From the NCBI GenBank assembly GCA_036874045.1, contig CM072335.1:20033501-20097500 (forward strand): 64,000 nucleotides of DNA, given 5' to 3'. Position numbers and translations under genes: made by a program. Positions 4,320-30,117 of the stretch are shown here, in pieces. This DNA comes from Cymodocea nodosa. Its lineage: Eukaryota > Streptophyta > Magnoliopsida > Alismatales > Cymodoceaceae. Within the stretch, counting starts at the first letter, position 1. Every line of letters begins with the position of its first letter. A model generated the notes under the pieces. The model made no database searches. It saw only the letters and a list, made by a program, of their open reading frames with translations, and was not told where the DNA came from.

Positions 4320-6485
4320 TGTTTGATTACCCAGCATGACACCAGAAAACCTGATTGGATCTCCAACAACGCACCAGAAAAACATGGATTTGTTAACTTC
4401 TGTTTTTACTTAGTTAATTGATCTTTATGCCTATTCTTTTTTTTTAGAAGTAAACAAACAACCTTTAACACAATTTAGATATTAATTCCAATTTGTATTT
4501 TAATTGCAAGTGCATAGTGTCTATTGTATTAATGTACAAGTACATGTCGATCTCATAGAGAATTGTTTAAGAATTGAGAACTGTTCCGTTTGTTAACAAT
4601 CAAATTTATATCTTCAATAAGCCCTCTGTTGAGTTACAGTTAACTCAACGTACATAGTTCGTTGAGTTATGGTTAACTTAATGGACTAACCTCGTGGACT
4701 TAAGTTAACTCCACGAGCCTGTCTTTTCTTTTTAATAATGCTATTTACAGAGGAATTCGGCTAACCATTGGGCGATTCCACAGATTGTAAATAACATCAA
4801 TTAAGCTCTTTAATGCTAGTAAACACTAGATTTATCATTAAGCATACTAACATTCAGATAATTCAAACAGTAACCATTAAAATCTTTAAGTCTTTTGAAC
4901 GAACTAATTTCAGTAAACTGTAAAACTAAAACAAATATAAAACAATCACAACACTGACAAAGATAACATTAATCACGATACAACACAAACAATACAACAC
5001 TCAAATACAAAATACAAACACAGATAAATTGTTTTTGGTATTTTTGTTTTAATATGAACATGAAAATGGGCGAAAGGTGAAATGTAAAGTAATCTCAATC
5101 GACAGTAAATACTTCCGTCACTACATGCGACGTGATTACACCACTGAAAATTAAACTACTTACAATTCTGTCTTCTCTCCCTATAGAATCGTGAGTCTAG
5201 AATTGCAAGATGATCTCCTCTTCAATATACAGGCATCAATCCGAAGCTAAGGCTAGAAGCTCTACGATCTCCTGAAATATGTGTCAGCGATTGGTGAAAA
5301 TGGCTTCCCTTCCCGCGATGCGATCACTCCTCACAGTGGTTGTTAGGCACTGTGTTTGGCTCAGAATCGACTCGACATCAAGAAAGTATCCTTACAGACC
5401 TCCAATGGTTGGTGATTATGGTGGTGGTAATGATGGTTGGTGTGATACTTCAGAGAATTGCTGACACTGTCTGTAGAAAGCTCGGTGCTCCTCCTCTATA
5501 TACATTGGCCATACCCATCGATCACACCTTTTACTTCTTTTACTTCTTTTCTTTTATATTTCTTCAGTGGTAACTGCTTCTACTTAAATGGTCGGTTGGA
5601 TTTCCTTCATTCATATAAACGATGATGCTTTCTTCTCCCTGTGCGATACTTGCAATCGTGGTTTTTCTTCCAACAGTCCTGTTTCTACAACCGCTACAGT
5701 GGCATATTAGAAAATAAATAGTTCGTGGAGTTACAGATAACTCAACGGACTTGTTTCGTTGATTTAACTATAAAACACATGCATAAATTTAACTATCCGA
5801 TGCTCAGGTGCATTTCAGATACTTACAGATAACTCACCGATATATAACTTAAGTAAATCTACCAGATCTCGACACGTGTCAACAACAGCTTAATAATAAT
5901 AAAAGAAACATTTCGGAGAGTTACAGGTCTAACTATCCGATGCTCAGATGCATTTCGGATAGTTAGAGATAACTCACCGAAAATCTACTTAAGTCACTTT
6001 CCCAAAACATGACACGTGTCCTTCATCTATTTTATAAATAAAAGGAGATTTCGAAGAGTTACACATATAACTATCCGATGCCCAGCTGCAATTTCGGATA
6101 GTTATAGATAACTCACCGAAAGTTCACTTTGAGTCATGCATTATGGTTTCGACACGTGTACTTCAAGAAGTAATAAACTATTCTTTTAAAACATAACTGT
6201 TCGGTAGTTTAAACATAACTATCTGATACATGTTCGGTATGTTAAACATAACTATCCGAAATATCAAAAAATTCGGATACCTAAGGATTTCACAGCCTGC
6301 AACTTACTAACAATTTAGAAATGTACTAAATTAACATTAATTCCACCAAATTAAGCAAATTCTTTAATTAGAGCTTATAACAGTGCAATTATAACATAAT
6401 AGCTTAATTCTCATATGATAAGCTAAATATTATGCAATTAACCATCATTTAACCGTTAATAATATACACTTTTTCATTCTAAACA
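4320..6485 (-). repeat. 3' LTR of element B (2166 bp)
   Basis: It runs from TGTTTGATTACCC at 4320 to CATTCTAAACA at 6485; read on the minus strand it starts TGTTTAGAATG. The part farthest from the internal region carries three adjacent palindromes (about 4623-4722). The U3 side (about 5720-6250) carries repeated CGGATAGTTA/TAACTATCCG arms with GACACGTGTC words between them. The small open frames at 5279-5573 lie antisense to the LTR and are shadows. By eye the U3 side resembles the other B LTR closely. Confidence 0.9.
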
Positions 6486-6500
6486 CTTCCCCCATACCTA
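6486..6500 (-). other. Polypurine tract of element B
   Basis: The minus strand reads AGGTATGGGGGAAG directly before the LTR start TGTTTAGAATG. The same position in element H (57381-57389) reads TAAGGGAAG. Confidence 0.8.
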
Positions 6501-8259
6501 AATTTTGCTAGTCCCTTAGCAAACTAAGATCTCATTAATGGGTCTTTCTAAAAGTACTAGAATTAATTTTTCCCCCCTTTTTTTTCTTCTATTCAGCATA
6601 AGAACTAGTATTATTATATAGATATTCTGTATGTTTCAGTAATCAACCTGCAAATATACTTAGAATATATGCAAATTACATACAAAGTATATCATCATCA
6701 CATAAGTATTAATTATCTTATCATGTTTTCTTCTTTTCATCATCTATCATCCTGAATTTTCCAATAAGATTTCTAGTAGAAATTTCAACAACATACTAAT
6801 CAAAGTACAATCCAATTCAATATGATTAAGACAAGTAGAATAAAGAATTGTATCTCCATTAAACAACTTCAAAAGTCAATTCTAGGTTCATATTTTAGCA
6901 ATTCTAGATAATAGAAAATATACTCAATTCATAAGATATCTGTATTTCACAAAACACTTGTATCTTTTCAAAACAGTATATGTATTTTTTTTGTACTTTA
7001 AAAGTTAATTTGACAAGCTTAAATCATATAGGAGCTTTCTAATGTACCCATGTAACGAACTTTCAGTCAACAATCCTAGATCTGATCAGGATCTTAGGTT
7101 GCCAGATTTCAAGAGTCCTTTTTCAGGTCAACAATCCTTACATACTTATCTGCTCAAGTACAAAAGGCTCATGATCAAACAAGTCAATAAACTCTCAATT
7201 TTTTTTTTTTTTTTACAAAACAAAGACATTAATCACATACTGTATATGTACGTATTTCATTAATATAGAAGCAATAAAACACCAATCTCATATAGTCCTG
7301 CTTCTATCATTTACTGTAAATATGAATCCATAACAATAAGCTCATACTTTTTCTGTAGTTTAGTAAGATCTACACATAAATCATTCTACAAGTTTAATCA
7401 GTCAAATTAAATGTATCTTTAATCATATGTATTTCATTTAATCTAGAATTCATATTTCAGCTCCTTCAGGACTTCAGATAATTTTTTTCATTAAGCATTC
7501 TGATTTCATTTTAAAATCATGAAACTGTTAAACTCATGAAATTCAGAAAAAAACATAAGATACTATATCTAGATTTGCATAAATAATAAATTCTATAGCA
7601 TCTTATATAGCCTTCTAAATATAACATTCAAGTAGTTACAGTTTATATAAAAAGAAATTTACAGTCTCAATTATCGGATAGTTACAGCAAGTTCATAAAA
7701 ATTTTCAATTTCTACAAAACTTTGCAGTACCATTTTAATTCCTTTAGTTAACAAACTTACATGGCTGTTACTTTAATTACCTCCCCCCATACCTACATTT
7801 TGCATTATCCTCAATGTAAAAGATTTGACAATAAATATAGTAATTGTAGCAGGCATGAATACAGTTTTGTTGATTTAGCACCTAACTCAACGAATGAGTT
7901 TAAATTTAAATTTAGGATAAGTAATCAGTTACATACCTTGTTTCATTTGTATCTCCTTCTACATATTCTGATTTTTGAATCTGAAAAACTTTTCATTCAC
8001 AGATAAAAGCAGAATATAAAACAAAATAACATTTAACAGATATTGATAAATTAGTGTCTTTTATGGAACCCATGCTCCTATGCTGCTGGTGGCTCACAAG
8101 CAAGCTAGTTGGTTTCCCAGAATAGATACCAACAAACTGGATTGATATTTTGTTTTTTTTTCTTTTATAAAATAAAAATGAAAACTACATTTTTCTCTTC
8201 TTTTTTTTTCAAAAAATAAATGCAGAATACACACAACATTAAACACACAAAATCACAGC
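6501..8259 (-). other. 3' untranslated region of element B
   Basis: About 1.75 kb of AT-rich sequence lies between the F-box stop and the terminal polypurine tract. I see no coding region. It holds one palindrome word (TAACTCAACGAA near 7885) and a second polypurine-like block at 7780-7795. The stretch from about 6970 to 6486 has a close relative at 56889-57389 in element H. Confidence 0.7.
7780..7795 (-). other. Second polypurine-like tract inside the 3' UTR
   Basis: The minus strand reads GTAGGTATGGGGGGAGG, preceded by GCAAAAT, nearly the same words as the terminal tract at 6486-6500. Element C has the same block at about 36078-36092. Its distance from the LTR (about 1.3 kb) means it is not the terminal primer. 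Confidence 0.55.
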
Positions 8260-9396
8260 TTAAGAACATGATTGAAAAGTAGAAACAAATGGAATAAATG
8301 TGTCAATCCAAGCAAACTTTTTAGGCAAAATTCTTCTTGCTATTAATCCTGTTTTAATGTAGTTCTTGTTCCTTCTTAATTTGTAAACGTGTAATATATT
8401 ATAAATTCTAAATACAAGTGTATTACCATTAATGATATGAAATGCAGAAAGGGATCGTTTTCGGTTCCAAGGTAATGTAGCAGTTTCTATTTCTACATCT
8501 ATTTCAATATATTCATCTTCCCACTTCCATTCATTTATGTCTTTCATAATTCATATTTGAAATTTCATCAATTCATCCCACCATCTTATCAAACATAAAG
8601 TAGGATCATCATATTCATTATACCACATTACTATTTGAATTTTATCAAATTCTGCAGATGGTGGTTTAGTTATTTCTCTCGGTATAGGTAAAATTTCTAT
8701 ATATTCATCATAACAATCTATGCTCACTATGTAGAAATCAGATCCAAATGCTATTGATATATCTGTGACTAGATATACATATCCATCAAGTATGACATAC
8801 ATGTTGTTAATTAATGATTTTTGGCCTAGATATATCATAATATTTTCAGTCCAAGATCTATTCAGAAAATTATACACACTTAAGGGTAAATCTTCACCCC
8901 AATTTCCTGTAGGTCTCCAATAATATAATTTTTCAAGAATGGTAGAATTTTTATCAGAAAATATTAAAGCTGACCCACAATTTACAGTTGGTACTTCATA
9001 TCTATTAGGTCTTCCTATATTCCATTCTTCTCTTGTTATAGGATTTCTTATCAAAATATCAGGTAATAGACTTGCATACCTTGGTTTGGTCCTGTATATG
9101 ATTAATCCTTCATCCATCCCCATAATATGATCTATTCCTTCTAATGTGTTGGGTGGAATTTTAGTAGTTTCTTCCATAGTTAGATATTCATGGTTAATTG
9201 AACTACGATTAAATGACCTCCATATGAATCCATCTCTAATCTTAGTCATTTTTGTAGCTTGTAGTCCCTAAATATATTTTTCTTCAATACAGTCTTTAAT
9301 TTCCTTTGATACACAACACAGCCTATACATATCTTTAGCTGATAAGTTACTCAGCACTTCCCTTAGTGCATCCAACGGTAATTGCATCAATTCCAT
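8260..9396 (-). pseudogene. F-box protein gene carried by element B
   Basis: One frame of 379 codons runs from ATG (9396) to TAA (8260) with no frameshift and two in-frame stops, one near residue 44 and one (TGG to TGA) between FQI and MKDINEW. Residues 1-45 form an F-box: LPLDALREVLSNL, then YRLCCVSKEIKDC. The rest resembles the F-box-associated C-terminal region, with the NPITREEW block typical of these proteins. F-box proteins join SKP1 in SCF ubiquitin ligases and choose substrates; that role is inferred from the family. A second copy sits at the same place in element C (34449-35588). It lies between gag and the 3' UTR, in the same direction as the element. No substrate can be named. Confidence 0.85.
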
Positions 9397-9581
9397 TTGT
9401 CGATTCTGTATAACATAAACAAAAATTTAGCAAAGACAAAAATTAACTTAACTACTACACACCCTCGTGGAGTTAGGGCATAACTCAACGGACTAAGTTC
9501 GTTGAGTTAAGGACTAACTCTATGATACTATTAACTATAAATAAACTTATATATACATATAGTTACTTCAGTTATGCTGCT
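9397..9581 (-). promoter_or_regulatory. Spacer between gag and F-box gene with palindromes and a TATA-like box
   Basis: Two linked palindromes lie at 9472-9524: a CTCGTGGAGTTA arm, then TAACTCAACGGAC, then GTTCGTTGAGTTA. The minus strand has TATATATAAG at about 9546-9555, some 150 bp before the F-box ATG. Element C has the same layout (34268-34282 and 34351-34384). A promoter role is inference; the region is AT-rich. Confidence 0.45.
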
Positions 9582-10905
9582 TCATTCAACTACCCTCCCA
9601 GAAGAGGTATCAATTTCATTAACAGTTCTATTGGTAGGGTTAGGTATTGCTTGTACTGGCAATCCTCTAGTAGGTCTAACTTCCATTGATTCCTTCTGTC
9701 TAACTGGTATATTTCTATTCTAATTTTGAATTGTAGCATTTTCAAATACAAAATCTAGACGATTGTTTAATTGTTGGATTATCTTTTCTAATTTCTCTAT
9801 TCTAGATCCTTGTTCAAGTAATGCTTCGTAACTTATATTCTTTTCATTTACATTTTCTCCTCCTTGGAAATTGTTGTTTCTCTAAGATAAATTCGGGTGA
9901 TTTCTCCAATTAGGGTTATAAGAGTTTCCAAAGTTATCTAATATCATTTACATTTATGTTTGCATTCTTTTCTGCTAGCTTTTGATTTAATGATAACTCT
10001 TCTATTTTCTTTGTTAATTTAGTTAATTTCACTTCAAGCATAGTACTTGAATCTATTTCATGTATTCCTCTTAGCAATATTTTTTTATCTGCAATAGCTT
10101 CAGCTGAGTTTTCCCACTATGCAATTCCTTTTGCAAAGTTTTCTAAATAAGACCATGCTTCTTCACTACATAGTTTCAGAAATCCATTTTGACAAGTAGA
10201 TTCTAATAAAGATTTTGTTGAAACATCTATGCCTTCATAAATTATACTTATTAATTGTGCTTTACTCATTGCATGATGTGGACATTGAGTCAGTAAATCT
10301 TTAAATCTTTCAAAATATTTCCAAAATGATTCACCCTGTTTCTGGCTACACATTAATATTTCTTTTTTCTTTTTAATCGTTTGATGTGTTGGATAATATT
10401 TTTCCAGAAAAATAGAGCAAAATTCAGTCTATGTAGAAATTGAATCAGGTGACAAAGTATATAACCATCTCTTAGCTGTGTCTTTTAAAGAAAAAGGGAT
10501 ATATCTAAGTTTAATAGCATCTATACTCATGTTCTGCATTTTCATCATTTGACAAACTTCATTAAATTCTCTAAGGAAATAATAAGTATTCTCTCTTTCT
10601 AATCCATGAAAATGTGGCAATTGACTAATATAATTAGATTTCAGTTCAAACCTATCTCCCTCAAAGTTTGGCAATCGAATACATGAAGGTTCATCAACTA
10701 ATTCAGGATATGGAATTTCTCCTAATGATTTTTCTACTAGAGCAGCCATCTCTATGTTCTCTTTTAAAGAAAGGTTAGCTACACCCCAAAAAATTTCGTT
10801 AAAGTCCATTTTAGAAAATGTTTCAGTACGCCTCTATGTTGAATATTCCTGGTTAGGTGTTGTTACTAATCGTTTAGTGCTCAGAGAACTAGTCCATGTG
10901 CTCAT
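9582..10905 (-). pseudogene. Capsid-type gag of element B, located 3' of pol
   Basis: The start is ATG at 10905 (MSTWTSSLSTKRL) and the stop TGA at 9582. Residues ~100-270 match the plant retrotransposon gag (capsid) domain: LRYIPFSLKDTAKRWLYTL, ILMCSQKQGESFWKYFERF and IIYEGIDVSTKSLLES. A coiled-coil stretch follows (LTKKIEELSLNQKLAEKN), then a decayed SYNPN-HPNLSW block like that of Athila gags. No CX2CX4HX4C zinc knuckle is present where Athila-type gags carry one. There are several in-frame stops, and a deletion near 9945 breaks the frame relative to element C. It lies downstream of pol and ORF1, whereas gypsy gags are normally first. Confidence 0.85.
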
Positions 10906-11210
10906 AAATAAATAGTAGAAGATTAATTACATACTAGTCTGAAGCTTTCCATTCAGTAAATATTTGTTGACGGATGAAGTTGAATCAGCTGCTTCTCCTT
11001 CCAGTTCCTCCAACGCTTTTCTCCTTACTTTTAAAAGTGTTGGTAACTCGTAAATAACATTCTAGTTTATATATATAATGCACATCCATGATGTGAATAA
11101 ATCTCATTGCAAGAACGTGTCTTGCAACGTGCATCGTGGTTCCTGTTTTTAAGGGTACGTGTACCACTATTAATTTCAAATTTTGGTAACCACTAAATTG
11201 ACGAAGTTTC
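10906..11210 (-). promoter_or_regulatory. Leader of the capsid gag with a TATA box (11067-11078)
   Basis: The minus strand reads GCATTATATATATAAACTAG about 165 bp before the gag ATG. Elements C (TATAAATA, 32690-32697) and H (TATAAATA, 49798-49805) have a TATA box 185 bp before the same ATG, in a well-conserved leader. This suggests a separate internal promoter for gag. It has not been shown to be transcribed. Confidence 0.5.
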
Positions 11211-11422
11211 GTTCGTGGTTAAAAGAATAACCGTTCTACTTAATCCACGAACTAACCTCGTTGAGTTACAGATAACTCAATGGAACAAAGTCGGTTATTG
11301 TTGCTAACTCCACGAACTAACTTCGTTGAGTTATAGATAACCCAACGGAGTGACCCTATATTATATTACTTACCTCATGGAGTTAAGCTTAACTCAACGA
11401 ACTTACTTCGTTGAGTTAACAC
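11211..11422. repeat. Palindrome cluster between ORF1 and gag (element B)
   Basis: Four or more imperfect palindromes follow one another. Arms such as CTCGTTGAGTTA, CTTCGTTGAGTTA and CATGGAGTTA are answered by TAACTCAATGG, TAACCCAACGGAG and TAACTCAACGAA. Loops are 3-6 bases. The same cluster is at 49455-49662 in element H. Confidence 0.8.
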
Positions 11423-11873
11423 TTGGCAACTTCTAAATTTACTCCTCGTAAGTATCTTTCTGCTTTTTTTTCCTTTTCATTCTACTAACTAAAATAAAGT
11501 TAAATCTATGTCATTAATGCATCATTCTAATCAAAATTCATTTAAATCTGAACATTATATAAATATTTAACTTGCAGGACATTTTATGTTATGCAGAATT
11601 TACATTTTACCTTGTAGCATGCAGATATTTTCAAGCATCTATTATTTAATCCTGTCATTCAGCAAACTGTAAATCTTTTTAAACATTCATGCATAATGTT
11701 CCACAAATTATATAACATTCAATAAATTCCATTCATTTCACATTCAAAACATGTATGAAAAGTACATTTGAAAAATTTATATTCATTAACATGAATCAAT
11801 TTACATTACAAGTACATCAGACAATTTTCATACAGTTTTATACAAGTAGACAAACAATACAATTTAGTCTCTA
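11423..11873 (-). other. ORF1-gag spacer of element B
   Basis: About 450 bp of AT-rich sequence with no open frame of note. It is homologous to 30483-30783 in C and 49007-49454 in H, so it belongs to the element. Confidence 0.6.
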
Positions 11874-14070
11874 TTCCTAAGTTCATCTACTTCCTTCTGG
11901 AGTTTTTCTAATTGTTGCTCTAATTGATTAATTCTTTCTATAGCTCTTGTAATTCCTCTAGAAGGTACAACAATTTCTGCAGCTACAAAATTTCTGTATT
12001 CTTTCACTGAAATGGTTCTTTATTTCATCGTTTTTGATGCCCATTTAGTGAAATCGATATAATCCACCATCAGTAGTGGAATCAAATCTCCATAAAACAA
12101 TTTCTTCTTTACTATTCTCAGCTTGGAGACAAAAACTGTAGACTCAATTCTATTTACAACTGCATATGTGACCCATTTGACAAATTGACTCAATTCCATG
12201 TCATGGCCTTATTGTTGATAGACATTCTTAATCAAAATGTTGGCTACCATGTGTGCTTTACCATTTAAATGCTTCAGTCTATTTAATAAAGCACACCAAG
12301 ATTGATAGCTAAACTGTCCTTGATTTCCTATTCTGTCCATTCAACAGTAGTTGTACTTTCCAAAATTTCTTGTCCTTCATTTTTTAACCCAAAAATGTTG
12401 TGGAGAAGCTCAGGTGTTATCTGTACATCTACTTCCTCCATGTTGGAAATTAATTTTCCTTTTTCTTCTCTCAAATTTGTATAAAAACAGGGTACTAGAT
12501 TCTCATATACTACATGCCCTCTTTCTTAAGAAATAAAATTCAGTAGACCTTGGAATTCAAATAATTCTTTGATTTCTTGCATTCCAACCCAATTTACTGG
12601 TCTACTATAAATAATATCATAACCCCTAATCTCTTGATATTTATTATAAGCTTCCTGACTCCAAAAATGTACTTCATTCAAAACTGTTGTTTCAGTCAGG
12701 TTAGGAATGTGACTTTGTTGTTCCAGAGGGGTTTGTTCTTGATCTTCCTCTACCATAGGTTGAACTTGAACATGTTCTGTAGATTCCTGAATTTTTTCTT
12801 TTGCTTTTGTCTGTGGTGGTGAGCCGACAGAACTCTCCACTTTGTCTTGAATTGTTTCATTTAAATCAGTGGAATCTACAAAGTCATTTTTGTCCAAATG
12901 GCTTCGTTCAGCTTCTTCTTCATTTTCTGTCCTTTCTTCTTCCTCTTGACTACCAATCTGCTCTGTCACAGTTCTTTTTGATTCTATGGAAGATTGGGAT
13001 GGAGTCACGGGCAATTCAGTTTCTGTCCTAATTTTTGTTTCTTCTTCTTGTACAGGCTGTAGACTAATTTCAGCCTGATTTTCTTTTTCTCTTTGCTCCT
13101 ACTGCTGTTGCTCCTGCTCCTCCTCAAAATCGGATAGTAGGTTTATAAAAATTAGCTCCATAGGCCTTGTTGACATTGGTACTTCAGATTTAATCTCTTT
13201 TTGAAACTCAGGCACTATCTCTTTTCCTTTCCTTCGTATGATTAATTGTGCCTGTTCTTCCTCTTCTTCTTCTAAGATTAAATCTAGAAATAAAGGCTCT
13301 ACATGCCTTTGAGCCATAGGTACTAGCTCTTCCTATTTAATTTTTCCAATAATTGCTGGTCTCGAAGGACCAACTTTAGCTTCTTTTGCAGCAAATTTGA
13401 CAGTAATTCTAGTAGTAGCTTCTTGATGTTGTTCCACTTTAATTTTATATTGGGCTTGCAATTTTTCTACAGCCCTCTTTTTGCATAGTGCATCAAACAC
13501 CAGATGTGCTTTGGCTATTGCTAAATCTTCTAGTTCTCCTTGGTTTCTTCCAACTTGAACTAGTGCTTGAAATTCTTTTAACTCTTCTTCATTTGAAGGC
13601 CCCATCATTGTTGCTTGTGCCAACGACTTAAATGGTGGACCTAAAGGTCCTAGCTGTTGTTCCTCAAGAACAGGTCTTTCAGCAGTCGGCTCCTCCTGTT
13701 CTACCTCTACTTGTTCCTGCCACCTTATTGCACCCCTTGCACGACCAGCAATGCGCTTTTTGAACCATAATCTGGCTTTGCGCTGGATTAGTTCTAGGGC
13801 TACTTCATTGTTCGACTTGATTTTTCTTTCTTTGCTTAAACCAATTTCTGTCGCTACTTTTATTTTTGTTTCTACTATTTGGGGTATTTGTATACCCAAA
13901 TCAACCAAAAATTTCCTCAAGTTGAAGAGTTCTGATTCTACATTTTGTAGCTATTTCTCTCTTGTCGTATTCCGAATCTTTTGCCGCATGTGCCATTCTT
14001 CTGATTCCTTTAGAAACTGTGTTGTGTCAACTGCATCTTCCCAGAACTCAAGTGTCATCTTCCTCATCAT
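11874..14070 (-). pseudogene. ORF1 of element B (Athila ORF1 / plant transposon protein type)
   Basis: The frame starts at ATG 14070 (MMRKMTLEFWED), just 3' of integrase and its spacer. It is in one frame to about 12526 with few stops, then has one frameshift before the stop at 11874; length is about 730 codons. The first two thirds are charged and rich in Glu, Gln and Lys. The C-terminal third (from NWVGMQEIKELFEF, through the LVPCFYTNL and LNGKAHMVANILIKN blocks) resembles plant Athila ORF1 and putative plant transposon proteins as I remember them. The last 35 residues form a coiled coil (ERINQLEQQLEKLQKEVDEL). In Athila elements this position is called env-like; I see no signal peptide or membrane segment. 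Its function is unknown. Confidence 0.75.
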
Positions 14071-15047: not shown

Positions 15048-15264
15048 CTAGCTGTTTAGAATGAAAAAGTGCATATTATTAACGGTTAAATGATGGTTAA
15101 TTTCATAATATTTAGCTTATCATATGAGAATTAAGCCATTATGTTATAATTGCACTATTATAAGCTTTAATTAAAGAATCTGCTTAATTTGGGGAAATTA
15201 ATGTTAATTTAGTACATTTCTGAACTGTCGGTAAATTGCAGGTTGTGAAATTCTTAAGTATCCG

Positions 15265-19265: not shown

Positions 19266-20698
19266 ATGACTGATATAAAAGGATTAAGTTCAACTTTATG
19301 CTGTCACCACATATATTTAGAAGAGAATGCTAAACCTGTTAGAATTCTTGAGAGGAGATTAAATCCAAACCTTAAAGAAGTAGTTAGGAAGGAAATAGTG
19401 AAATGGATAGATAATGACATAATTTATTCGATTTCTGATAGTTCGTGGGTTAGCCCAATCCATGTAGTTCCTAATAAATCAGGATTAACAGTTATTAGGA
19501 ATGAAAGTCAAGACTTGATACCTACTAGAATTCAATCAGGCTGGAGAGTATGTATAGACTATAGAAAGCTGAATGCTGTGACTAGGAAAGATCATTTTCC
19601 CTTACCTTTTATAGATCAAATGCTGGAAAGATTAGCAGGGCAAGAATATTTTTGTTTTCTAGACGGGTATTCAGGTTATAATCAAATTCCAGTAGCATTA
19701 GAGGATCAAGAGAAAACAACTTTCACCTGTCCTAATGGAACTTATGCTTTTAAGAGAATGCCATTCGGATTATGCAATGCACCAGCTACCTTTCAAAGGT
19801 GTATGCAGGGCATATTTATTGGAATGACTGAAGATTTCTTAGAAATATTTATGGATGATTTTACTGTATATGGCAACTCATATTAAGTCTGTTTAAAAAA
19901 TTTAGACCTAATATTAAAACGCTGTGTGGAAAAAAATCTAGTGTTAAATTGGGAAAAATGTCACTTCATGGTTAAACAAGGAATAGTCTTAGGGCATGTT
20001 GTTTCAAAGAAAGGGTTGGAAGTAGATAAAGCTAAAATAGTAGTAATTTCTAATCTACCAAAACCTAAATCAGTAAAAGATATTAGATCATTTCTAGGAC
20101 ATGCTGGTTTTTATAGAAGATTTATTAAAGACTTTAGTAAGATAGCTAGACCTTTAACTAATCTATTAAAAGATGTTCCATTTAACTTTGATAAAAATTG
20201 CAAGGAAGCATTTTTCAAACTTAAAACTAGCTTAATTTCAACTCCTATAATTCAAGCACTTGATTAGAGCCATCCATTTGAATTAATGTGTGATGCATCT
20301 GATTTTGCTGTAGGAGCAGTGTTGGGACATAAGATAGAAAAATCTCCTAGAGTGATTAATTATGCAAGCAAAACCTTAAATGATGCTCAAGTTAATTACA
20401 CAACTACTGAAAAAGAACTATTAGTTGTTGTGTTTGCCTTAGAAAAGTTTAGATCATATATGATTGGAGCTAAAGTAATAGTATACACGGATCATGCAGC
20501 TTTAAAGCATCTAATAGCAAAAAAAGAAACTAAACCTAGATTAATTCGATGGATATTATTATTACAAGAATTTGATCTAGAAATTAAAGATAAAAAAAGT
20601 TGTGAGAATGTAGTAGTAGATCATTTATCAAGATTACAAATAGAAAAATCAAATATTGAAATTAAGGATAATTTTCTTGATGAACAATTAATGACCAT
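19266..20698 (+). pseudogene. Reverse transcriptase and RNase H, element A
   Basis: RT runs from about 19266 to 20260. It shows [49 protein letters not shown] and the catalytic FMDD (19848-19859). A stop follows at about 19885 (GNSY then stop), and another at 20266 where the relatives have Trp. RNase H begins about 20270 ([17 protein letters not shown]) and continues through [15 protein letters not shown] and [15 protein letters not shown]. The frame is cut at 20698 by a solo LTR and continues at 22635. Motifs place it in the Athila/Tat part of Ty3/gypsy. Copying function is lost through the stops. Confidence 0.92.
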
Positions 20699-22629
20699 TG
20701 TTTGTGTTTTCCCAGCACTACACTAGAAAAACTTGGATTTGTTACTTCTATTTTTACTTAGTTAATTTATCTTTATGCCTATTCTTTCTTTTAGAAGTAA
20801 ACAAATAACCTTTAATACAATTTAGATATTAATTCCAATTTGTACTTTAACTGCAAGTGCACAGTGTTTATTGTATCAGTGTGCAAGTACAGGTCGATCC
20901 CATAGGGAATTGCTGACGAATTTAAGAAATGTTTGATTGTGAACAATTCAAATTTATATTCAACGGACTAAGTTCGTTGAGTTATGGCTAACTCAACGGA
21001 CTATCCTCATGGACTTAAGTTAACTCCACGAGCCTACCTCTTCTTTATAATACTGCTATTTACAGAGAAATTCGGCCAACCATTGGGCGATTCCACAAAT
21101 TGTAAATAACATCAATTAAGCTTTTTAATGCTAGTTAACATTGGATTTATCATTAAGCAATACTAACATTCAGATGATTCAAACAGTCACCATTAAAATC
21201 TTTAAGTTTTTTGTATGAACCAATTTCAGTAAACTGTAAAATTAAAACTAACATAAAATAATCATAAAACTGATATAGATAACATTAATCACAATACAAC
21301 ACAAACAATACAACACTCAAATACAACATACAAACAAAGATAAATTGTTTTTGGTATTTTTGTTTTGATGTAAACATGGAAATGGGTGAAAGGTGAAATG
21401 TAAAGTAATCTCACTTGACAGTAAATACTTACGACACTACTTGCAACGTGATTACACCACTGAAAATTAAACCACTGAAAATTAAACCACTTACAATTCT
21501 GTCTCCTCTCCCTATAGAATCGTGAGTCCAGAATTGTAAGATGATCTCCTCTTCAGCATACAGGCATCAACCCGAAGCCAAGGCTAAAAGCTTTACGATC
21601 TCCTGAAATATGAGTCGGTGCTTGGTGAAAATGTCTTCCCTTCCCGCGACGTGATCACTCCTCATAGTGGTTGTCAGGCACTGTGTTTGGCTAGGAATCG
21701 ACCCGACATCAGGCAAGTATCCTCACAGACCTCCGATAATTGGTGATTATGGTGGTGATACGATGGTTGGTGTGATACTTCGGAGAATCGCCAATACTGT
21801 CTGCAGAAAGCTCGGTGCTCCTCCTCTGTATACACTCCGTCCATCGATCACACTTTCTTCTTTTTTTCTTCTTTTCTTTTATATTTCTTCAGTAGTAACT
21901 GCTTTTGCTTGAATGATCGGTTAGATTTCCTTCCTTTAGATCAACGGCGATGCTTCCTTCTCCATGCGCGATTGAATTCCTGCGTGATACGTGCAAACGT
22001 GGTTTTTCCTTCCAACTATCTGTTCCTGCAACCGCTACAGTGGCATTTTGGAAAATAACTATAAAATACATGCAATAAAGAAATAAGCCGCTAACCTAAC
22101 GCGTTACCTTAGTGTATATTCATGTAACTCAACGCGTGTAGTTATGCTAACTTAACGTGTTAAACATGTGCATCTCACGTGATATTCTAAAGCATTTAAA
22201 TTCAACACGTGCATAAAATACATGCAATAAAGAAATAAGCTGCTAACCTAACACGTTACCTTAGTGTATATTCATGTAACTCAACGCGTGTAGTTATGCT
22301 AACTTAACGAATTATAACTTAAGTAAATCTACTAGCTCTCGACACGTGTCAGCAGTAGTTTAAAAATAACATTTCGGAGAGTTACAGGTATAACTATCCA
22401 ATGCTCAGATGCATTTTCGGATACTTAAGAATTTCACAGCCTGCAACTTACCGACAGCTCATAAATGTACTAAATTAACATTAATTCCCCAAAATTAAGC
22501 AGATTTTTCAATTAAAGCATATAACAGTGCAATTATAACATAATGACTTAATTCTCATATGATAAGCTAAATATTATGCAATTAACCATCATTTAACAGT
22601 TAATAATATGCACTTTTTCATTCTAAACA
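20699..22629 (-). mobile_element. Solo gypsy LTR inside element A (1931 bp)
   Basis: It is flanked by ACCAT (20694-20698 and 22630-22634). It lies in reverse: on the minus strand it starts TGTTTAGAATG and ends CCCAGCACTACACTAG reversed, i.e. AGTGCTGGGAAAACACAAACA. This 3' end differs from that of element A's LTR and marks another subtype. It also holds a doubled block (about 22060-22170 and 22205-22315) with CTAACCTAACGCGTTACC words. Confidence 0.92.
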
Positions 22630-22634
22630 ACCAT

Positions 22635-23204
22635 CAACACAATACCTTGGTATATAGACATAGTTAATTACTTAGTTACTAGTTTAACACCTAAGGATTG
22701 TAATAGATAGGATAAGAAATTATTTTTCTCAAGAGTAAAATATTACTATTGGGAAGACCCATACTTATTTAAGAAATGTCCTGATCTGGTTTTAAGGAGG
22801 TGTGTTCCAGAAACTGAATATCCGAGCATATTGTCTTTCTGTCATGACCAAGCTTATGGAGGGCATTTTGGCTCAGGGAAAACTGCTGCAAAAATTCTGC
22901 AATGTGGATTTTATTAGCCAACACTATTCAAAGATGCTCATAAATATTGCGTAAGTTGTTTAAGATGTCAACAAATAGGGAGAATATCAAAGAGGAATAT
23001 GATGCCTCTTAATCCTATTGTTGAGGTTGAAATCTTTGATGTGTGGGGAAAAGATTTTATTGGTCCATTTCCTATGTCTAATCAATTTAACTACATATTG
23101 TTGGGGGTGGATTATGTATCTAAATGGATAGAAGCTATACCTACAAAAACTAATGACAACAAAGTGGTAATACAATTTATAAGAACCAATATATTTGCTA
23201 GATT
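22635..23204 (+). pseudogene. Integrase N-terminal half, element A
   Basis: It resumes pol after the solo LTR. The zinc-binding HHCC domain is seen (FCHDQAYGGHFG, then CVSCLRCQQIG), then the start of the catalytic core, VWGKDFIGPFPMSNQFNY and DYVSKWIEAIPTK. A TGG-to-TAG stop lies near 22916. The coding sequence ends at about 23204 within RTNIFARL and switches to LTR sequence, so the second Asp and the Glu of the DDE site are gone. Confidence 0.9.
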
Positions 23205-24857
23205 GAGCTATATCGGATAGTTAGACCTATAACTCTCAGAAATGTTTCTTTTATTAATAAACTGCTGCTGACACGTGTCGAGATTTGGTAGATTTACTTA
23301 AGTTATATATCGGTGAGTTATTTGTAACTATCCGAAATGCATCTAGGCATCGGATAGTTAAGTTGTAAGTATCCGAAATGCACTTGAGCATTGGATAGTT
23401 AAATTTATGCACGTGTTTTATAGTTAAATCAACGAAGTAAGTCCGCTGAGTTATCTGTAACTCCATAGACTATTTATTTTCTAATATACCACTATAGCGG
23501 TTGCAGAAATAGGACAGTTGGAAGAAAAACCACGATTGCACGTATCGCGTAGGGAGAAGAAAGCATCATCGTTGATATGAATGAAGGAAATCCAACCGAC
23601 CATTCAAACAGAAGTAGTTACCACTAAAGAAATATAAAAGAAAAGAAGAAAAAGAAGTAATGGGTGTGTGATCGATGGGTATGACTAGTGTGTACAAAGG
23701 AGGAGCATTGAGCTTTCTGTAGATAGTATCGGCAATTCTTTGAAATACCACACAAACCATTATTACTACCACCATAATCACCAACCATTGGAGGTCTGTG
23801 AGGATACTTTCCTAATGTTGGGTCGATTCTGAGCCAAACACAGTGTCTGACAACCACTGTGAGGAGTGATCGCGTCATGGGAAGGGAAGGCATTTTCACC
23901 AAGTGTCGACTCATATTTCAGGAGATCGTAGAGATTCTAGCCTTGGCTTCGGGTTGATGCTTGTATGCTGAAGAGGAGATCATCTTGCAATTCTGGACTT
24001 GCGATTCTATAGGGAGAGGAGACAGAATTGTAAGTGTTTTAATTTTTAGTGGTGTGATCGCGTCGCATGTAGTGACGGAAGTCTTTACTATCGACTGAGA
24101 TTACTTTGCATTTCACCTTTCGCCCATTTCCATGTTCATATTAAAACAAAAATACCAAAAACAACTTATCTGTGTTTGTATTTTATATTTGAGTGTTGTA
24201 TCGTGATTAATGTTATCTTTGTTAGTGTTGTGATTGTTTTATGTTTGTTTTAGTTTCACAGTTTACTGAAATTAGTTTGTTTAAAAGACTTAAAGATTTT
24301 AATGGTTAGTGTTTGAATTATCTGAATGTTAGTATGCTTAATGATAAATCCAATGCTTACTAACATTAAAGAGCTTAATTGATGTTATTTACAATTTGTG
24401 GAATCGCCCAATGGTTGGCCGAATTCCTCTGTAAATAACAGTATTAAAAAGAAAAGGCAGTCTCGTGGAGTTAACTTAAGTCCACGAGGTTAGTCCGTTG
24501 AGTTAACCATAACTCAACAAACTTTGTTTGTTGAATTAACTGTAACTCAACAGAGGGCTTATTGAACATATTAATTTGATTGTTAACAAATGGAACAGTT
24601 CTCATTTCTTAAACAATTCTCTGTGGGATCGACCTGTATTTGCACACTAATGCAATAGACACTATTCACTTGCAGTTAAAATACAAATTGGAATTAATAT
24701 CTAATTTGTGTGAAAGGTTGTTTGTTTACTTCTAAAAAAGGAATAGGCATAAAGATAACTTAACTAAGTAAAAACAAAAGTTAACAGATCTAAGTTTTTC
24801 TAGTGCGTTGCTGGAGATTCAAACTAGTTTTCTAGTGTCGTGTTGGGTAACCAAACA
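23205..24857 (+). repeat. 3' LTR of element A, 5'-truncated
   Basis: LTR sequence starts in the U3 palindrome array (ATCGGATAGTTAGACC) and runs to GGTAACCAAACA at 24857, followed by the target duplication. The first ~500 bp of the LTR and everything between integrase and it are deleted. Open frames at 23254-23914 on the minus strand are shadows. Confidence 0.88.
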
Positions 24858-24862
24858 CTAGC

Positions 24863-25620
24863 CTAAAAGGTGACATACCTAAACTTGTTTTATAAGTAGT
24901 TCTATAAGCCCAAAGTGTATCTATCAATCTATTAGCCCAATTTGTTCTAGTAGGATTTACTACTTTTTCTAAGATTAACTTAATTTGTTTGTTTGCACTT
25001 TCTACTTGTCCACTTGTTTGCGGATGATATGATGTTGTAATTTTGTGGTTTACTCCATATTTCTTCATTAAGGCTTCAAAACTTCTATCACAGAAATGAG
25101 TTCCTCTATCACTGATAATAGCTTTAGGTATTCCAAATCTAGCAAATATATTGGTTCTTATAAATTGTATTACCACTCTGTTGTCATTAGTTTTTGTAGG
25201 AATAGCTTCTATCCATTTAGAAACATAATCCACCCCCAACAATATGTAATTAAATTGATTAGACATAGGAAATGGACTCATAAAATCTATTCCCCACACA
25301 TCAAAGATTTCAACCTCAACAATAGGATTAAGAGGCATCATATTCCTCTTTGATATTCTTCCTATTTGTTGACATCTTAAACAACTTAAGCAATATATAT
25401 GAGCATCTTTGAATAGTGTTGGCCAATAAAAACCACATTGCAGAATTTTTGTAGTAGTTTTCCCTGAACCAAAATGCCCTCCACAAGCTTGGTCATGACA
25501 GAAAGACAATATGCTCGGATATTCAGTTTCTAGAACACACCTCCTTAAAACCAGATCAGGACATTTCTTAAATAAGTATGGGTCTTCCCAATAGTAATAT
25601 TTTACTCTTGAGAAAAACAA
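24863..25620 (-). pseudogene. Integrase of element B (zinc-binding and catalytic core)
   Basis: The minus strand is open from MFFSRVKYYYWEDP to MSPFRLV. The HHCC domain (HDQACGGHFG and CLSCLRCQQIG) comes first. Next is the core with all three acidic positions: Asp in VWGIDFMSPFP, Asp in IISDRGTHF, and Glu in SGQVESANKQIK. The end joins 15047 after element A and its target duplication are removed. This is the best-preserved enzyme part in the window and shows no stop. The extra residues GYPTRH at the apparent end come from A's LTR. Confidence 0.93.
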
Positions 25621-25629
25621 TTTCTTATC

Positions 25630-27138
25630 CTATCTATTCCAATCCTTAGGTGTTAAACTAGTAACTAAGTAATTAACTATGTCTACATACCAAGGTATTG
25701 TGTTGATGGTCATTAATTGTTCATTAGGAAAATTATTCTTAATTTCAATATTTGATTTTTCTATTTGTAATCTTGATAAATGATCTGCTACTACATTCTC
25801 ACAACCTTTTTTATCTTTAATTTCTAGATCAAATTCTTGTAATAATAATATCCATTGGATCAATCTAGGCTTAGTTTCTTTTTTTGCTATTAGATGTTTT
25901 AAAGCTGAATGATCTGTGTATACTATTACTTTAACTCCAATCAGATATGATCTAATCTTTTCTAAGGCAAACACAACAGCTAATAGTTCTTTTTCAATAG
26001 TTGTGTAATTAACTTTAGCATCATTTAAGGTTTTGCTTGCATAATGAATCACTCTAGGAGATTTTTCTATCTTCTGTCCCAACACTGCTCCTACAGCAAA
26101 ATCAGATGCATCGCACATTAATTCAAATGGATGACTCCAATCAGGTGCTTGAATTATAGGAGTTGAAATTAAGCTAGTTTTAAGTCTGAAAAATGCTTCC
26201 TTGCAATTTTTATCAAAGTTAAATGGAACATCTTTTAATAGATTAGTTAAAGGTCTAGCTATCTTGCTAAAGTCTTTAATAAATCTTCTATAAAAATTAG
26301 CATGTTCTAGAAACGATCTAATATCTTTTACTGATTTAGGTTCTGGTAGATTAGAAATTACTTCTATTTTAGCTTTATCTACTTCCAACCCTTTCTTAGA
26401 AACAACATGCCCTAAGACTATTCCTTGTTTAACCATGAAGTGACATTTTTCCCAATTTAAAACTAATTTTTTTTCCACACAACATTTTAATATTAGGTGT
26501 AAATTTTTTAAATAGATTTCATATGAGTTGCCATATACAGTAAAATCATCCATAAATATTTCTAAGAAATCTTTAGTCATTCCAGTAAATATGCCCTGCA
26601 TACACCTTTGAAAGGTAGCTGGTGCATTGCATAATCCAAATGGCATTCTCTTAAAAGCATAAGTTCTAGTAAGACAGGTGAAAGTTATTTTCTCTTGATC
26701 CTCTAATGTTACTGGAATTTGATTATAACCTGAATACCTGTCTAGGAAACAAAAATATTCTTGCCTTGCTAATCTTTCCAGCATTTGATCTATAAAAGGT
26801 AAGGGAAAATGATCTTTCCTAGTCACAGCATTCAGCTTTCTATAGTCTATACATACTCTCTAGCCTGATTGAATTCTAGTAGGTATCAAATCTTGACTTT
26901 CATTCCTAATAACTGTTAATCCTGATTTCTTGGGAACTACATGGATTGGATTAATCCACGAGCTATCAGAAATTGGATAAATTATGTCATTATCTAACCA
27001 TTTCACTATTTCCTTCCTGACTACTTCTTTAAGGTTTAGATTTAATCTCCTCTTAGGAATTCTAACAGGTTTAGCATTCTCTTCTAAATATATGTGGTGA
27101 CAGCATAAAGTTGAACTTAACCCTTTTATATCAGTCAT
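25630..27138 (-). pseudogene. Reverse transcriptase and RNase H, element B
   Basis: RT begins near 27138 (MTDIKGLSSTLCCHHIYLEE) and is broken only by a TGG-to-TAG stop at about 26860, just before [12 protein letters not shown]. It continues for 398 codons with [16 protein letters not shown] and the catalytic FMDD (26545-26556). RNase H follows from [17 protein letters not shown] through [15 protein letters not shown]. The linker to integrase ends with a stop near 25630 (TPKDWNR then stop). Gene order and motifs are the same as in element A, and identity is high by eye. Confidence 0.93.
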
Positions 27139-27740
27139 AGTCCATCGTATTGCTTCTTTATAACTTTTTACTACATCTTTTAATTTTTAGCTTTTTGATC
27201 CTCTTTTAAATCTGAAGCAATAATGATTGGACAAGTTCGTTTCTCTTCCAGAAATATATAGGTTAATTTAGGAGGTAAAGGTTTTAATTCTAAATGTTAC
27301 CCATTAGAAGCTAGAGCTCCTAATTGAACATCATCATTTTCTAAATTAATTTCTTCCTGACCTCCTTCTATATTTATGCTTTCACTTTCCTCTAAATTTT
27401 CAGAATTGATTTGCCTATTTAATTCTTCTTGAATCACATCATCTAACATATCTCCTTCATCCTTTAAAAATTCTATGGTATGTAAGGACATTTCTAACTC
27501 CTCAAACATTTCTGGTTTGAAAATATTTAATTGAGTATCCTAATTACCATATGCTAACTTCATTACTCCAGTTTTACAATTTATAACAGCCCTTGATGTT
27601 GCTAAAAATGGCCTTCCCAAAATTAAAGATGTATCACTATTTTTATGCTTAATTTGTTGGGAATCCAAAATTACAATATCAATAGGATATATAAAGTTTT
27701 TGATTTTAATTAAGACATCCTCTATTTTTCCTCTAAGGTA
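27139..27740 (-). pseudogene. Protease C-terminal part and linker, element B
   Basis: On the minus strand from 27740: the region after protease (LGRPFLATSRAVINCKTG), then an acidic linker (INLENDDVQLGALASNG) with stops and a small frame change. It is homologous to 18650-19265 in A. Confidence 0.7.
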
Positions 27741-28379
27741 TCATATACTTCTATCAACTAATTGAATAACTGTACTAGTAGGAGTTAAGCCTTCTAATCC
27801 TAAGGATGTAAATATATCACTTGACATAACATTTATACCTACACCTAAGTCTATTAAGGTTCTCTCTAGAATGGTATTTCCTATGGTGCATGATATAACA
27901 GGGATTCCAGGATCAGATAAGTTTTTAGGAATTTGTGACAGAAATAGAGAACTACTTTGCTTAGCTAAAAAGTCCTTTCTAAGAACTTTTCGCTCTCTTT
28001 TCTTAGTACACCAATCCTTCAGAAATTTAGCACAAGGTGACATTTTCTGCAATAGATCTAACAAAGCAATGTTAACTTGTACTTTTTCAAAAATTTCTCT
28101 AATGTTTTCTTGTTTTTCAGGTATTGTTTGTTGTAATCTTTTAGGATAGGGTGCTAAAGACTGTGATTTAAAAGATTCTTTTTCTTTCGTTTGATTTGTT
28201 TGATCATTTTTAGCTTCATTAGCAAATTCAGATTGTTCTTCTGTAATTTCTAGATTTTCAGCTATTACATTTTCATTATCGTTTTGATTTTTACTCTTAT
28301 CCACCTTCATATTATTTTCATTTTGAGTTCTTGGTGGTATATCAATTCTAGATCTTAATGTTACACATACATCTTCCAA
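27741..28379 (-). pseudogene. Aspartic protease region, element B
   Basis: The frame of 212 codons carries VCVTLRSR, SLAPYPKRLQQTIPEKQE and FLKDWCTKKRERK. The protease core IPVISCTIGNTILERTLID is followed by LGVG where A has LGAS, so the residue after Asp-Leu-Gly is changed. The frame ends after TSTVIQLVDRSI. It overlaps the preceding gag-like frame because one base has been lost near 28380. Confidence 0.85.
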
Positions 28380-28741
28380 TTTTCGTTATTCTCATGATGT
28401 TTTTGTATATCATTTTCGTGCTTATGATCTTCAATTGTTTTTAGTTTTAAAGTGCATTCTTTAAATTCTCTTGCATTAGTATTTTCTATTTGCTGTATAT
28501 TTTGCAAATTATGCAGATCTATAACATTATAATTTTCATTGTCTTGTTGCATAACTTGTATTTTCGTTGTATATTCGTCTAATGCTTTTAGTTTTCTTTC
28601 TAGATCATCTAATCTCATTGCATTCAATTTTTGATCAATTTTCATTATGGTTTTTTCAGTTTCGTAAATTATATCCATTTTAGGTTCTGAATATGCTTCC
28701 TTATAGTTTAATTGGTTGACTTCTTGTTGTTGACACATAAA
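28361..28741 (-). pseudogene. Post-knuckle region of the pol frame, element B
   Basis: The minus strand opens at MCQQQEVNQLNYKEAYSEP and matches the part of element A after its zinc knuckle (from about 17668). The knuckle itself, the PBS and the end of the LTR are missing. At 28742 the sequence passes through ~40 bp of mixed filler into LTR sequence. Confidence 0.8.
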
Positions 28742-28780
28742 GTCATTTACAATTCTGAAATTTTTGATAGGTTCAATTTT

Positions 28781-30117
28781 TGAAAATTAAACCATTTACA
28801 ATTCTGTCTCCTCTCCCTATATAATCGCGAGTCCAGAATTGCAAGATGATCTCTTCTTCAACATACAGGCATCAACCCAAAGTCAAGGCTAGAAGCTCTA
28901 CGATCTCTTGAAATATGAGTCGGTGCTTGGTGAAAATAGCTTCCCTTCCTGCAACGCGATCACTCCTCACAATGGTTGTTAGGCATTGTGTTTGGCTCGG
29001 AATTGACTAGACATTAGGAAAGTATCGTCACAGACCTCCGTTGGTTGGTGATTGTGGTGGTGGTAATGATGGTTGGTGTGGTACTTCAAAGAATTGCCAA
29101 CACTATCTGCAGAAAGCTCGGTACTCCTCTATACACACTGGCCATACCCATCGATCACACCTTTTACTTTTTTTTTTTCTTTTCTTTTATATTTCTTCAG
29201 TGGTAACTGCTTCTGCTTGAATGGTCGGTTAGATTTCCTTCATTCATATCAACAACGATGCTTTCTTCTCCCCGTACGATACGTGCAATTGTGGATTTTC
29301 TTCCAACTGTCCTATTTCTGCAACTACTACAATGGCGTATTAGAAAATAAATAGTCTGTGGAGTTACAGATAACTCAACGGACTTGCTTCGTTGATTTAA
29401 CTATAAAACACGTGCATAAATTTAACTATCTGATGCTCAGGTGCATTTCGGATAGTTACAGATAACTCACCAATATATAACTTAAGTAAATCTACCAGAT
29501 CTCGACACATGTCAGTAGCAGTTTAATAATAATAAAAGAAACATTTCGGAGAGTTACAGGTCTAACTATACGATGCTCAGATGCATTTCGGATAGTTAGA
29601 GATAACTCACCGAAAATCTACTTAAGTCACTTTCCCAAAACATGACACGTGTCCTTCAGCTATTTTATAAATAAAAGGAGATTTCGGAGAGTTACACATA
29701 TAACTATCCGATGCCCAGCTGCAATTTCGGATAGTTATAGATAACTCACCGAAAGTTCGCATAAGTCATGCATTATGGTTTTGACACGTGTACTTCAGGA
29801 AGTAATAAACTATTCTTTTAAAACATAACTATTCGGTAGTTTAAACATAACTATCCGATACATGTTCGGTATGTTAAATATAACTATCTGAAATATCAGA
29901 AAATTCGGATACCTAAGGATTTCATAGCTTGCAACTTACTGATAGTTCAGAAATGTACTAAATTAGCATTAATTCCCCCAAATTAAGCAGATTCTTTAAT
30001 TAAAGCTTATAACAATGAAAGTATAACATAATGACTTAATTCTCATATGATAAGCTAAATATTATGCAATTAACCATCATTTAACCGTTAATAATATGCA
30101 CTTTTTCATTCTAAACA
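28781..30117 (-). repeat. 5' LTR of element B, 3' part deleted
   Basis: It starts (minus strand) TGTTTAGAATG at 30117 next to the target duplication ACCAA. It ends inside the transcribed part of the LTR near 28781. U3 palindromes and GACACGTGTCC words are at 29340-29900. The deletion took U5, the PBS and the zinc knuckle. Confidence 0.88.

What the first reader, a model, noticed from the sequence alone, without database searches (positions are those of the whole stretch)
4320..30117. A giant gypsy family with a permuted, split gag: zinc knuckle at the start of pol, capsid gene 3' of pol and ORF1
Seen: in A (17276-18024) and in the older copy G (45157-45658) the PBS is followed within ~90 bp by a frame that starts with a zinc knuckle and, in A, continues into protease; there is no capsid domain and no room for one. 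In B, once nested A is removed, the order is protease, RT, RNase H, integrase, ORF1, capsid gag, F-box, LTR. C and H repeat ORF1 then gag, and C repeats gag then F-box. The downstream gag (9582-10905, 32876-34222) lacks the knuckle that Athila gags carry before the SYNPN block. Known: Ty3/gypsy elements normally encode gag first, capsid and knuckle together. Inference: the two halves of gag have been separated to opposite ends of one element and would have to be made from different mRNAs. No single copy here keeps both halves, so this is a composite.
Basis: partly seen in the sequence, partly recalled or inferred. Interest (0 to 1): 0.88.

Follow-up and report, generated by a model that had tools for sequence, protein, structure and literature searches.

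The report
Retrotransposon with its capsid gene relocated
In this plant genome an abundant family of virus-like jumping genes carries its shell (capsid) gene at the far end, after the copying enzymes, while a small RNA-binding finger normally found in the shell protein sits in front of the enzymes; this reverses the gene order on which such elements are usually recognised.

Summary
The source genome is held (374.6 Mb, unnamed). In the window, B is one insertion (TSD TTGGT) reading pol-ORF1-capsid gag-F-box-LTR; A (TSD CTAGC), nested in B's integrase, reads LTR-PBS-zinc knuckle-PR. Elsewhere, 4 of 5 fetched 10-kb stretches starting at the PBS hold knuckle, pol, ORF1 and capsid in that order on one strand (one lacks RT; two are near-identical); the fifth ends in ORF1. 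None has a capsid between PBS and knuckle. Two were followed to both ends, about 2 kb of each unfetched: 17.1 kb, matching TSDs, LTR pieces 96.6% and 93.3% identical, F-box before the 3' LTR. In 20 of 20 sampled knuckle hits the LTR end and leader lie directly upstream. In 8 of 8 loci of two related families gag follows integrase; one of these seems to keep a knuckle in both places, so relocation or duplication of gag with complementary loss fits better than a clean cut. In the copies checked, arrays of an LTR palindrome precede each downstream gene. How capsid is expressed is untested.

The parts
4320..30117 (-). Element B, one insertion (A nested inside), TSD TTGGT
   Evidence: ends, TSD; LTR pair; LTR pair 92.2%
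28781..30117 (-). B 5' LTR, truncated; deletion joins it to the frame just after the knuckle (28743)
24858..28743 (-). B: post-knuckle part of the first frame, PR, RT, RH, INT (first part)
   Evidence: 94.7% identical to A 17663-20698; Pfam RVT_1, RNase H, rve
14653..15047 (-). B INT C-terminus, on the other side of nested A
   Evidence: short flanks joined read FRLVYGKSCHLP
13951..14652 (-). Spacer 1 (INT-ORF1) with palindrome array
11867..13950 (-). B ORF1, weak PF20167 (Transposase_32) match, several frames
10911..11866 (-). Spacer 2 (ORF1-capsid) with palindrome array
9585..10905 (-). B downstream gag: capsid (PF03732) and C-terminal part, no knuckle in its frames; Met at 10905 at the same place in B, C and H
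9394..9584 (-). Spacer 3 (capsid-F-box) with palindrome array
8263..9420 (-). B F-box gene region
   Evidence: 75% identical in protein to C's F-box (C Pfam F-box E 3e-10); B's own piece alone gave no Pfam match
4320..6485 (-). B 3' LTR
15053..24857 (+). Element A nested in B, TSD CTAGC; internal deletion at 23204/23212; minus-strand solo LTR 20699-22629 inside
15053..17268 (+). A 5' LTR
17276..17293 (+). A primer binding site (tRNA-Asp type by recall)
17368..18021 (+). A first frame: Met, knuckle CEFCNSEGHDISEC (17416-17457), coil
18025..18645 (+). A LRSG-like motif and protease (DLGAS motif)
30118..36734 (+). Element C remnant: ORF1 30120-30783, solo LTR 30779-32490, gag 32876-34219, F-box 34416-35585, LTR end
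45152..45658 (+). G: PBS and decayed knuckle frame of an older copy
46255..59509 (+). Element H, TSD CACGT: 5' LTR, pol deleted, ORF1, gag (50056-50539), insertion 50537-56888, 3' LTR

Best explanation
SHOWN: an abundant Athila-like Ty3/gypsy family, about 17 kb long, has the order LTR - PBS - zinc knuckle-PR-RT-RH-INT - ORF1 - capsid gag - F-box - LTR and has integrated as one unit with 5-bp TSDs. At least two related families in the same genome also carry gag 3' of integrase. INFERRED: a whole gag was relocated or duplicated to the 3' side of pol in their ancestor. A knuckle stayed (or was duplicated) on the 5' end of pol; the giant family then lost the knuckle of the downstream gag, leaving nucleocapsid on pol and capsid in its own gene. 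The full-length RNA would be translated into a knuckle-PR-RT-RH-INT polyprotein with no capsid, whose knuckle could tether the enzymes to genomic RNA. Capsid would come from a separate transcription unit: palindrome arrays like those of the LTR stand in the spacers in front of ORF1, capsid and F-box and suggest internal promoters, with spliced subgenomic RNA as the alternative.
For:: five 10-kb stretches; 4 of 5 hold PBS-knuckle-pol-ORF1-capsid on one strand (L031 lacks RT), 5 of 5 have no capsid between PBS and knuckle; two copies with matching TSDs (TCAAG, GGTTT), LTR pieces 96.6% (1000 bp) and 93.3% (1010 bp) identical, F-box and 3' LTR in place; 150 of 150 scored knuckle-frame hits (of 5766 candidates) span query residue 1-3 to 227-228; 20 of 20 sampled hits have LTR end and leader upstream; of 150 knuckle x 131 capsid hits, 6 same-strand pairs with capsid 3-25 kb downstream (five at 7.6-8.4 kb), none upstream, 4 on opposite strands. 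INT C-terminus lies upstream of gag in 8 of 8 loci of two other families; a CX2CX4HX4C frame without capsid about 4.3 kb upstream of the integrase end of one of them; fewer amino-acid changes than a spectrum-matched null in the knuckle frame (A-G 0.76, p<0.001) and capsid (B-C 0.85, p 0.009; B-L033 0.80, p 0.006), against 0.96-1.08 in 7 control comparisons; palindrome 47 times in 7.2 kb of spacers, 28 in 7.4 kb of LTR, 2 in 35 kb of coding pieces.
Against: No RNA or protein data: expression is inferred. Every copy whose frames I read is broken somewhere, so autonomy is unshown. The knuckle rests on motif and position: Pfam does not call it in A, and in L030 only weakly (zf-CCHC_2, E 0.18), though Pfam also misses the same motif in the related whole gag L002. 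The L065-to-A knuckle comparison is weak (E 0.15). Selection: capsid not significant in 2 of 4 comparisons (p 0.059, 0.196), knuckle frame not in 4 of 5, PR in 0 of 4; 42 comparisons were made without correction. L031 and L032 are about 99% identical, so the stretches are not five independent cases. With PF03732 hits in place of capsid hits the coordinate test gave 3 downstream, 2 upstream and 1 opposite (that list mixes families).
Confidence: 0.72

Rival explanations
1. Same anatomy, but capsid is made from a spliced subgenomic RNA starting in the 5' LTR, as proposed for env-like genes; the palindrome arrays are not promoters.
For: The downstream gag has its own Met at the same place in B, C and H; retroviral and plant env-like genes are thought to use splicing (recalled).
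Against: No conserved donor or acceptor was demonstrated here; arrays precede all three 3' genes in B, L030 and L033, and Sireviruses carry palindromic boxes in LTRs and in front of env (PMC2829016 passages).
Confidence: 0.4
2. The permuted elements are non-autonomous: capsid for their particles comes in trans from other families, and their own downstream capsid is a passenger or has a new role.
For: In Arabidopsis many Athila families lack pol and are thought to be moved in trans (PMC2410132 passages); many scored copies carry stops.
Against: The capsid is present in 4 of 5 stretches, the fifth not reaching it, and shows constraint in 2 of 4 comparisons.
Confidence: 0.15
3. Knuckle-pol and ORF1-capsid belong to separate elements, and B is a nesting or assembly artefact.
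For: No copy in the window holds both.
Against: Two TSD-flanked elements elsewhere hold both; two more stretches, near-identical to each other, show the same linkage, and a divergent remnant E has RH, capsid C-terminus, F-box and LTR start in that order.
Confidence: 0.02
4. A and G are deletion derivatives; intact copies have a conventional capsid between PBS and knuckle, and the downstream gag is an extra copy.
For: A carries other deletions and G is decayed.
Against: PBS to knuckle is direct in 5 of 5 stretches, and LTR end and leader lie directly upstream in 20 of 20 sampled hits.
Confidence: 0.02

Closest known systems
Athila / Calypso / Diaspora lineage (plant Ty3/gypsy)
   Same: PBS a few bases after the LTR, pol order PR-RT-RH-INT, CX2CX4HX4C knuckle, DLGAS protease motif, long LTRs (Diaspora passages); an extra ORF 3' of pol as in env-carrying members
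   Different: Diaspora has one gag-pol frame with capsid and knuckle first, and the same is said there of Athila and Calypso (PMC1142308 passages); here capsid gag is 3' of pol and ORF1, and the knuckle opens pol
Pol-less Athila families of Arabidopsis and their recombinants (Marco and Marin 2008, PMC2410132)
   Same: Modular exchange of gag, pol and env-like parts
   Different: No permuted order is mentioned in the passages read
Sireviruses with env (HOPIE, Inga)
   Same: Palindromic repeated boxes in LTRs and again in front of a 3' gene (PMC2829016 passages)
   Different: Ty1/copia; the boxes there have another core (CGG-CCG), and a displaced gag is not mentioned
Tat elements with an additional RNase H in a separate ORF (PMC10508981 passages)
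   Same: A domain moved out of the polyprotein into an ORF of its own
   Different: It is an RNase H placed upstream of gag or of pol, not the capsid placed 3' of pol
Spumaviruses (recalled, not tested)
   Same: Pol made separately from Gag
   Different: Gag is still 5' of pol, with capsid and RNA-binding parts in one Gag

Membership tests
Ty3/gypsy superfamily | pol order PR-RT-RH-INT | tested here: met
   (PR by motif and by match to A's frame)
Ty3/gypsy superfamily | gag first: GAG-PROT-RT-RH-INT | tested here: not met
   capsid lies 3' of INT and ORF1 in 4 of 5 stretches; the fifth ends in ORF1
Athila lineage | PBS complementary to tRNA-Asp close to the LTR end | tested here: inconclusive
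   PBS-like sequence 7 bp after the LTR; core within 3 substitutions in 17 of 20 leaders, 16 of them at the expected place (L046's match lies before it); pairing to tRNA-Asp rests on recall and Diaspora
Athila lineage | gag-pol in one frame with capsid followed by knuckle | tested here: not met
Athila lineage | RT groups with Athila in a tree | not testable with these tools
   no labelled Athila RT was at hand
Athila lineage | no second RNase H (unlike Tat) | not tested
   not examined separately
Athila lineage | extra ORF 3' of pol | tested here: inconclusive
   ORF1 is there, but has only a weak PF20167 match, E 0.0006-0.03, below cut-off

The most novel reading that the evidence does not exclude
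A clade of plant LTR retrotransposons has given up the Gag-Pol fusion: the nucleocapsid knuckle is fused to the polymerase and tethers it to genomic RNA, while capsid is a separate 3' gene with its own LTR-like control array. One family with a knuckle in both places records the intermediate step of gag duplication and complementary loss.
Probability: 0.4. Interest if true: 0.92.

Novelty: new variant of a known kind. Interest (0 to 1): 0.82.

Why it matters
Gag-first order and the Gag-Pol fusion are treated as basic to LTR retrotransposons and explain how polymerase gets into the particle. A successful, abundant family without them shows that capsid and polymerase need not be made as one product. 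It also exposes a blind spot: the reference survey of plant elements removed every element with domains in unexpected order as a likely misprediction (PMC6317226, passage seen), so such families may be hidden elsewhere.

Tried and rejected
Rejected: conventional 5' gag lost in A and G; separate elements; tandem or nested artefact (see rivals). Considered and dropped: that the spacers are LTR relics; only the short palindrome is shared, in both orientations, not a collinear stretch. Led nowhere: viral-contig searches with RT and capsid (0 relatives confirmed); protein searches outside the genome gave 4 gag relatives and 1 relative of the tail half of the knuckle frame; a census of what follows every PBS did not complete. 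Pfam did not call the knuckle in A, nor the motif in whole gag L002.

Paper searches for gag 3' of pol. No such element was seen in the listings or passages read. Passages were read in PMC7264820, PMC6317226, PMC2410132, PMC1142308, PMC9904347, PMC10508981, PMC2829016; no paper was read whole. Subscription literature is mostly missing from the library.
Full report
WHAT IS IN THE WINDOW. The window is a nest of related LTR elements. LTRs start TGTTTAGAATG and end CAAACA; one complete LTR is 15053-17268. Target-site duplications separate the insertions: A 15053-24857 (CTAGC), B 30117-4320 on the minus strand (TTGGT), H 46255-59509 (CACGT). A lies inside B's integrase; the two short B flanks read on as FRLVYGKSCHLP. 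LTR-pair distances (K) are 0.066 for A, 0.084 for B and 0.100 for H, so nested A is younger than its host B, as it must be.

A reads LTR, PBS, a frame with Met and CX2CX4HX4C, protease, RT, RNase H, then a solo LTR insertion, part of integrase, and a deletion into the 3' LTR. B has lost the end of its 5' LTR, the PBS and the knuckle, and reads post-knuckle frame, PR, RT, RH, INT, ORF1, gag, F-box, LTR. A and B are 94.7% identical over 3035 aligned bases of pol. C and H repeat the ORF1-gag order; G repeats PBS-knuckle at 73.6% DNA identity.

The downstream gag matches PF03732 (E 2.7e-13 in B and in C). Its Met stands at the same place in B, C and H, and in copy L033 the start reads MSTWTRSLSTKRLVRTP, like MLSWTRDNTSRLIRT of outside gag P0003. 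Outside gags P0002 and P0004 carry a knuckle-like stretch after the coil (P0004 keeps only part of the motif); the window gags lack it.

GENOME-WIDE TEST. The genome is held as G000, 374.6 Mb in 28 contigs, unnamed; the window is C1:20033501-20097500. The A knuckle frame (228 aa) gave 5766 first-look candidates; 150 were scored, and all 150 align from residue 1-3 to 227-228, 85-90% identical apart from A itself. The capsid piece P0001 gave 6966 candidates; 131 were scored, at 87-91% apart from B itself. Candidate numbers are not copy numbers, and the scored hits are the best ones.

I fetched 10 kb from the PBS of the first five stop-free knuckle hits other than A (rows 3, 4, 8, 13, 17). L030, L032 and L033 hold PBS, knuckle, PR, RT, RH, INT, ORF1 and capsid; L031 holds the same but lacks RT and part of PR; L029 reaches ORF1 at the end of the stretch, a minus-strand LTR sitting in its integrase. 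Capsid DNA starts at 8479, 6455, 8532 and 8493 (L030, L031, L032, L033). L031 and L032 are about 99% identical, and in both the gag C-terminus is interrupted, so these are not five independent events. The only CX2CX4HX4C in forward frames of 40 residues or more is at the start of pol, in 4 of 5; L033 has a Cys to Tyr change there.

Separate small pieces gave the ends of two copies: C1:16367903-16385055 (TSD TCAAG, 17153 bp, LTR pieces 96.6% identical over 1000 bp) and C9:2313009-2295931 (minus; TSD GGTTT, 17079 bp, 93.3% over 1010 bp). Both have F-box, 3' region and 3' LTR in the expected order; about 2.2 kb of each (part of the 5' LTR and of the 3' region) was not fetched. In the third copy (L032) the piece where F-box was expected, L058, matched no module; the next piece, L059, has F-box, 3' region and only the first bases of an LTR.

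A systematic sample of 20 knuckle hits (rows 5, 12 ... 138) showed LTR end and leader directly upstream in 20 of 20. A PBS-like core within three substitutions was found in 17 of 20; in L046 it lies 33 bp before the expected place, so 16 are well placed. Crossing coordinates of 150 knuckle and 131 capsid hits gave six same-strand pairs with capsid 3-25 kb downstream (five at 7.6-8.4 kb, one at 22.9 kb), none upstream and four on opposite strands. With the 150 PF03732 hits there were three downstream, two upstream and one opposite. Since only the best hits of each search are listed, few pairs are expected.

OTHER FAMILIES. The eight loci returned for PF03732 (L001-L008) fall into two further families by their gags (my grouping): L001 and L003-L006, where the gags of L003, L004 and L005 could be read past the usual place and lack a knuckle; and L002, L007, L008, where the gag of L002 has CEGCGLDNHSIDQC. 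In 8 of 8 the integrase C-terminus lies upstream of gag on the same strand, the capsid match beginning about 420-455 bp after it. These are the best-scoring eight of 150, not a random sample. A 901-bp piece upstream of L002 (L065) has a frame with CTKCMLFDHENDEC, its first Cys at residue 19 from the Met (17 in A), with an LRLGK-like motif near its end; no capsid is seen in the roughly 500 bp upstream and no PBS was recognised there. The stretch between L065 and L002 was not fetched, so their belonging to one element is inferred from spacing. If right, this family has a knuckle in both places. Whether this genome also holds families with gag first was not tested.

SELECTION. I compared observed amino-acid changes with changes of the same base types placed at random: 42 comparisons, no correction for their number. 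Controls in spacer and LTR: 0.96-1.08 (7). Knuckle frame: A-G 0.76 (p<0.001); the other four 0.78-0.93, not significant; its tail significant in 1 of 4. RT: 0.67, 0.72, 0.82 significant, 1.00 for L029. INT: 0.85-0.88, 1 of 3 significant. Capsid: 0.80 and 0.85 significant, 0.87 and 0.92 not. ORF1 C-part: 0.55, 0.62 and 0.73 significant, 0.85 not; ORF1 middle part 2 of 4. F-box: 0.86 against C significant, two others near 1. PR: 0 of 4. Recent copies mostly record decay after insertion. An earlier simple dN/dS gave 0.21-0.25 for the knuckle frame A-G and 0.37, 0.60 and 0.61 for capsid pairs, but LTR pseudo-frames gave 0.45-0.76, so I rely.

CONTROL ARRAYS. The palindrome CGTTGAGTTA/TAACTCAACG (at most one mismatch) occurs 47 times in 7.2 kb of the spacers before ORF1, capsid and F-box, 28 times in 7.4 kb of LTR, and twice in 35 kb of coding pieces, in B, L030, L032 and L033 taken together (for L032 only two spacers and an LTR tail were counted); B's 3' region has one in 1.8 kb, and the 264-kb neighbourhood 1.2 per kb. 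Positions within spacers agree between copies. LTRs found no match in 45 shuffled sequences. Sireviruses show a similar logic: palindromic boxes in LTRs and in front of env (PMC2829016 passages). The CAACGG core recalls MYB sites (recalled, untested).

INTERPRETATION. Shown: order, unit insertion, gag after integrase in other families. Inferred: relocation or duplication of gag with complementary loss, separate capsid expression, RNA tethering of polymerase by the knuckle. Athila families recombine often (PMC2410132 passages), which gives a route. The reference survey of plant LTR elements removed those with domains in unexpected order (PMC6317226), which may explain why none was found in my paper searches.

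Noticed in passing
window 50537-56888: A copia-like element (by eye) with 260-bp terminal repeats (91.5% identical) interrupts H's gag and itself hosts a solo LTR of the giant family (52903-55088).
   Followed up: partly
window 8263-9420 and 34416-35585; L055, L059, L061: An F-box gene sits between capsid and 3' LTR in B, C and the three copies checked, so it belongs to the family; its origin was not traced.
   Followed up: partly
L001-L008: Two other Athila-like families with gag directly after integrase; the gag of L002 keeps a knuckle.
   Followed up: partly
L023, L021, L010, L011, L013, L015 (C1:19986166-20160927): Six places with relatives of ORF1 at 33-45% identity; no pol or capsid hit next to five of them (the sixth lies 1.7 kb from copy D): possibly pol-less families.
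   Followed up: no
C1:20014-20019 kb (L020): Remnant E: RNase H, capsid C-terminus, F-box, 3' region and LTR start in that order, a divergent copy.
   Followed up: yes
L031 and L032 (C15, about 0.28 Mb apart): Copies about 99% identical over 7.9 kb: recent duplication or recent transposition, not resolved.
   Followed up: no
window 913-1320 (-) and 62328-63253 (+): Copia-type RT and gag fragments (by eye) at the window's ends.
   Followed up: no
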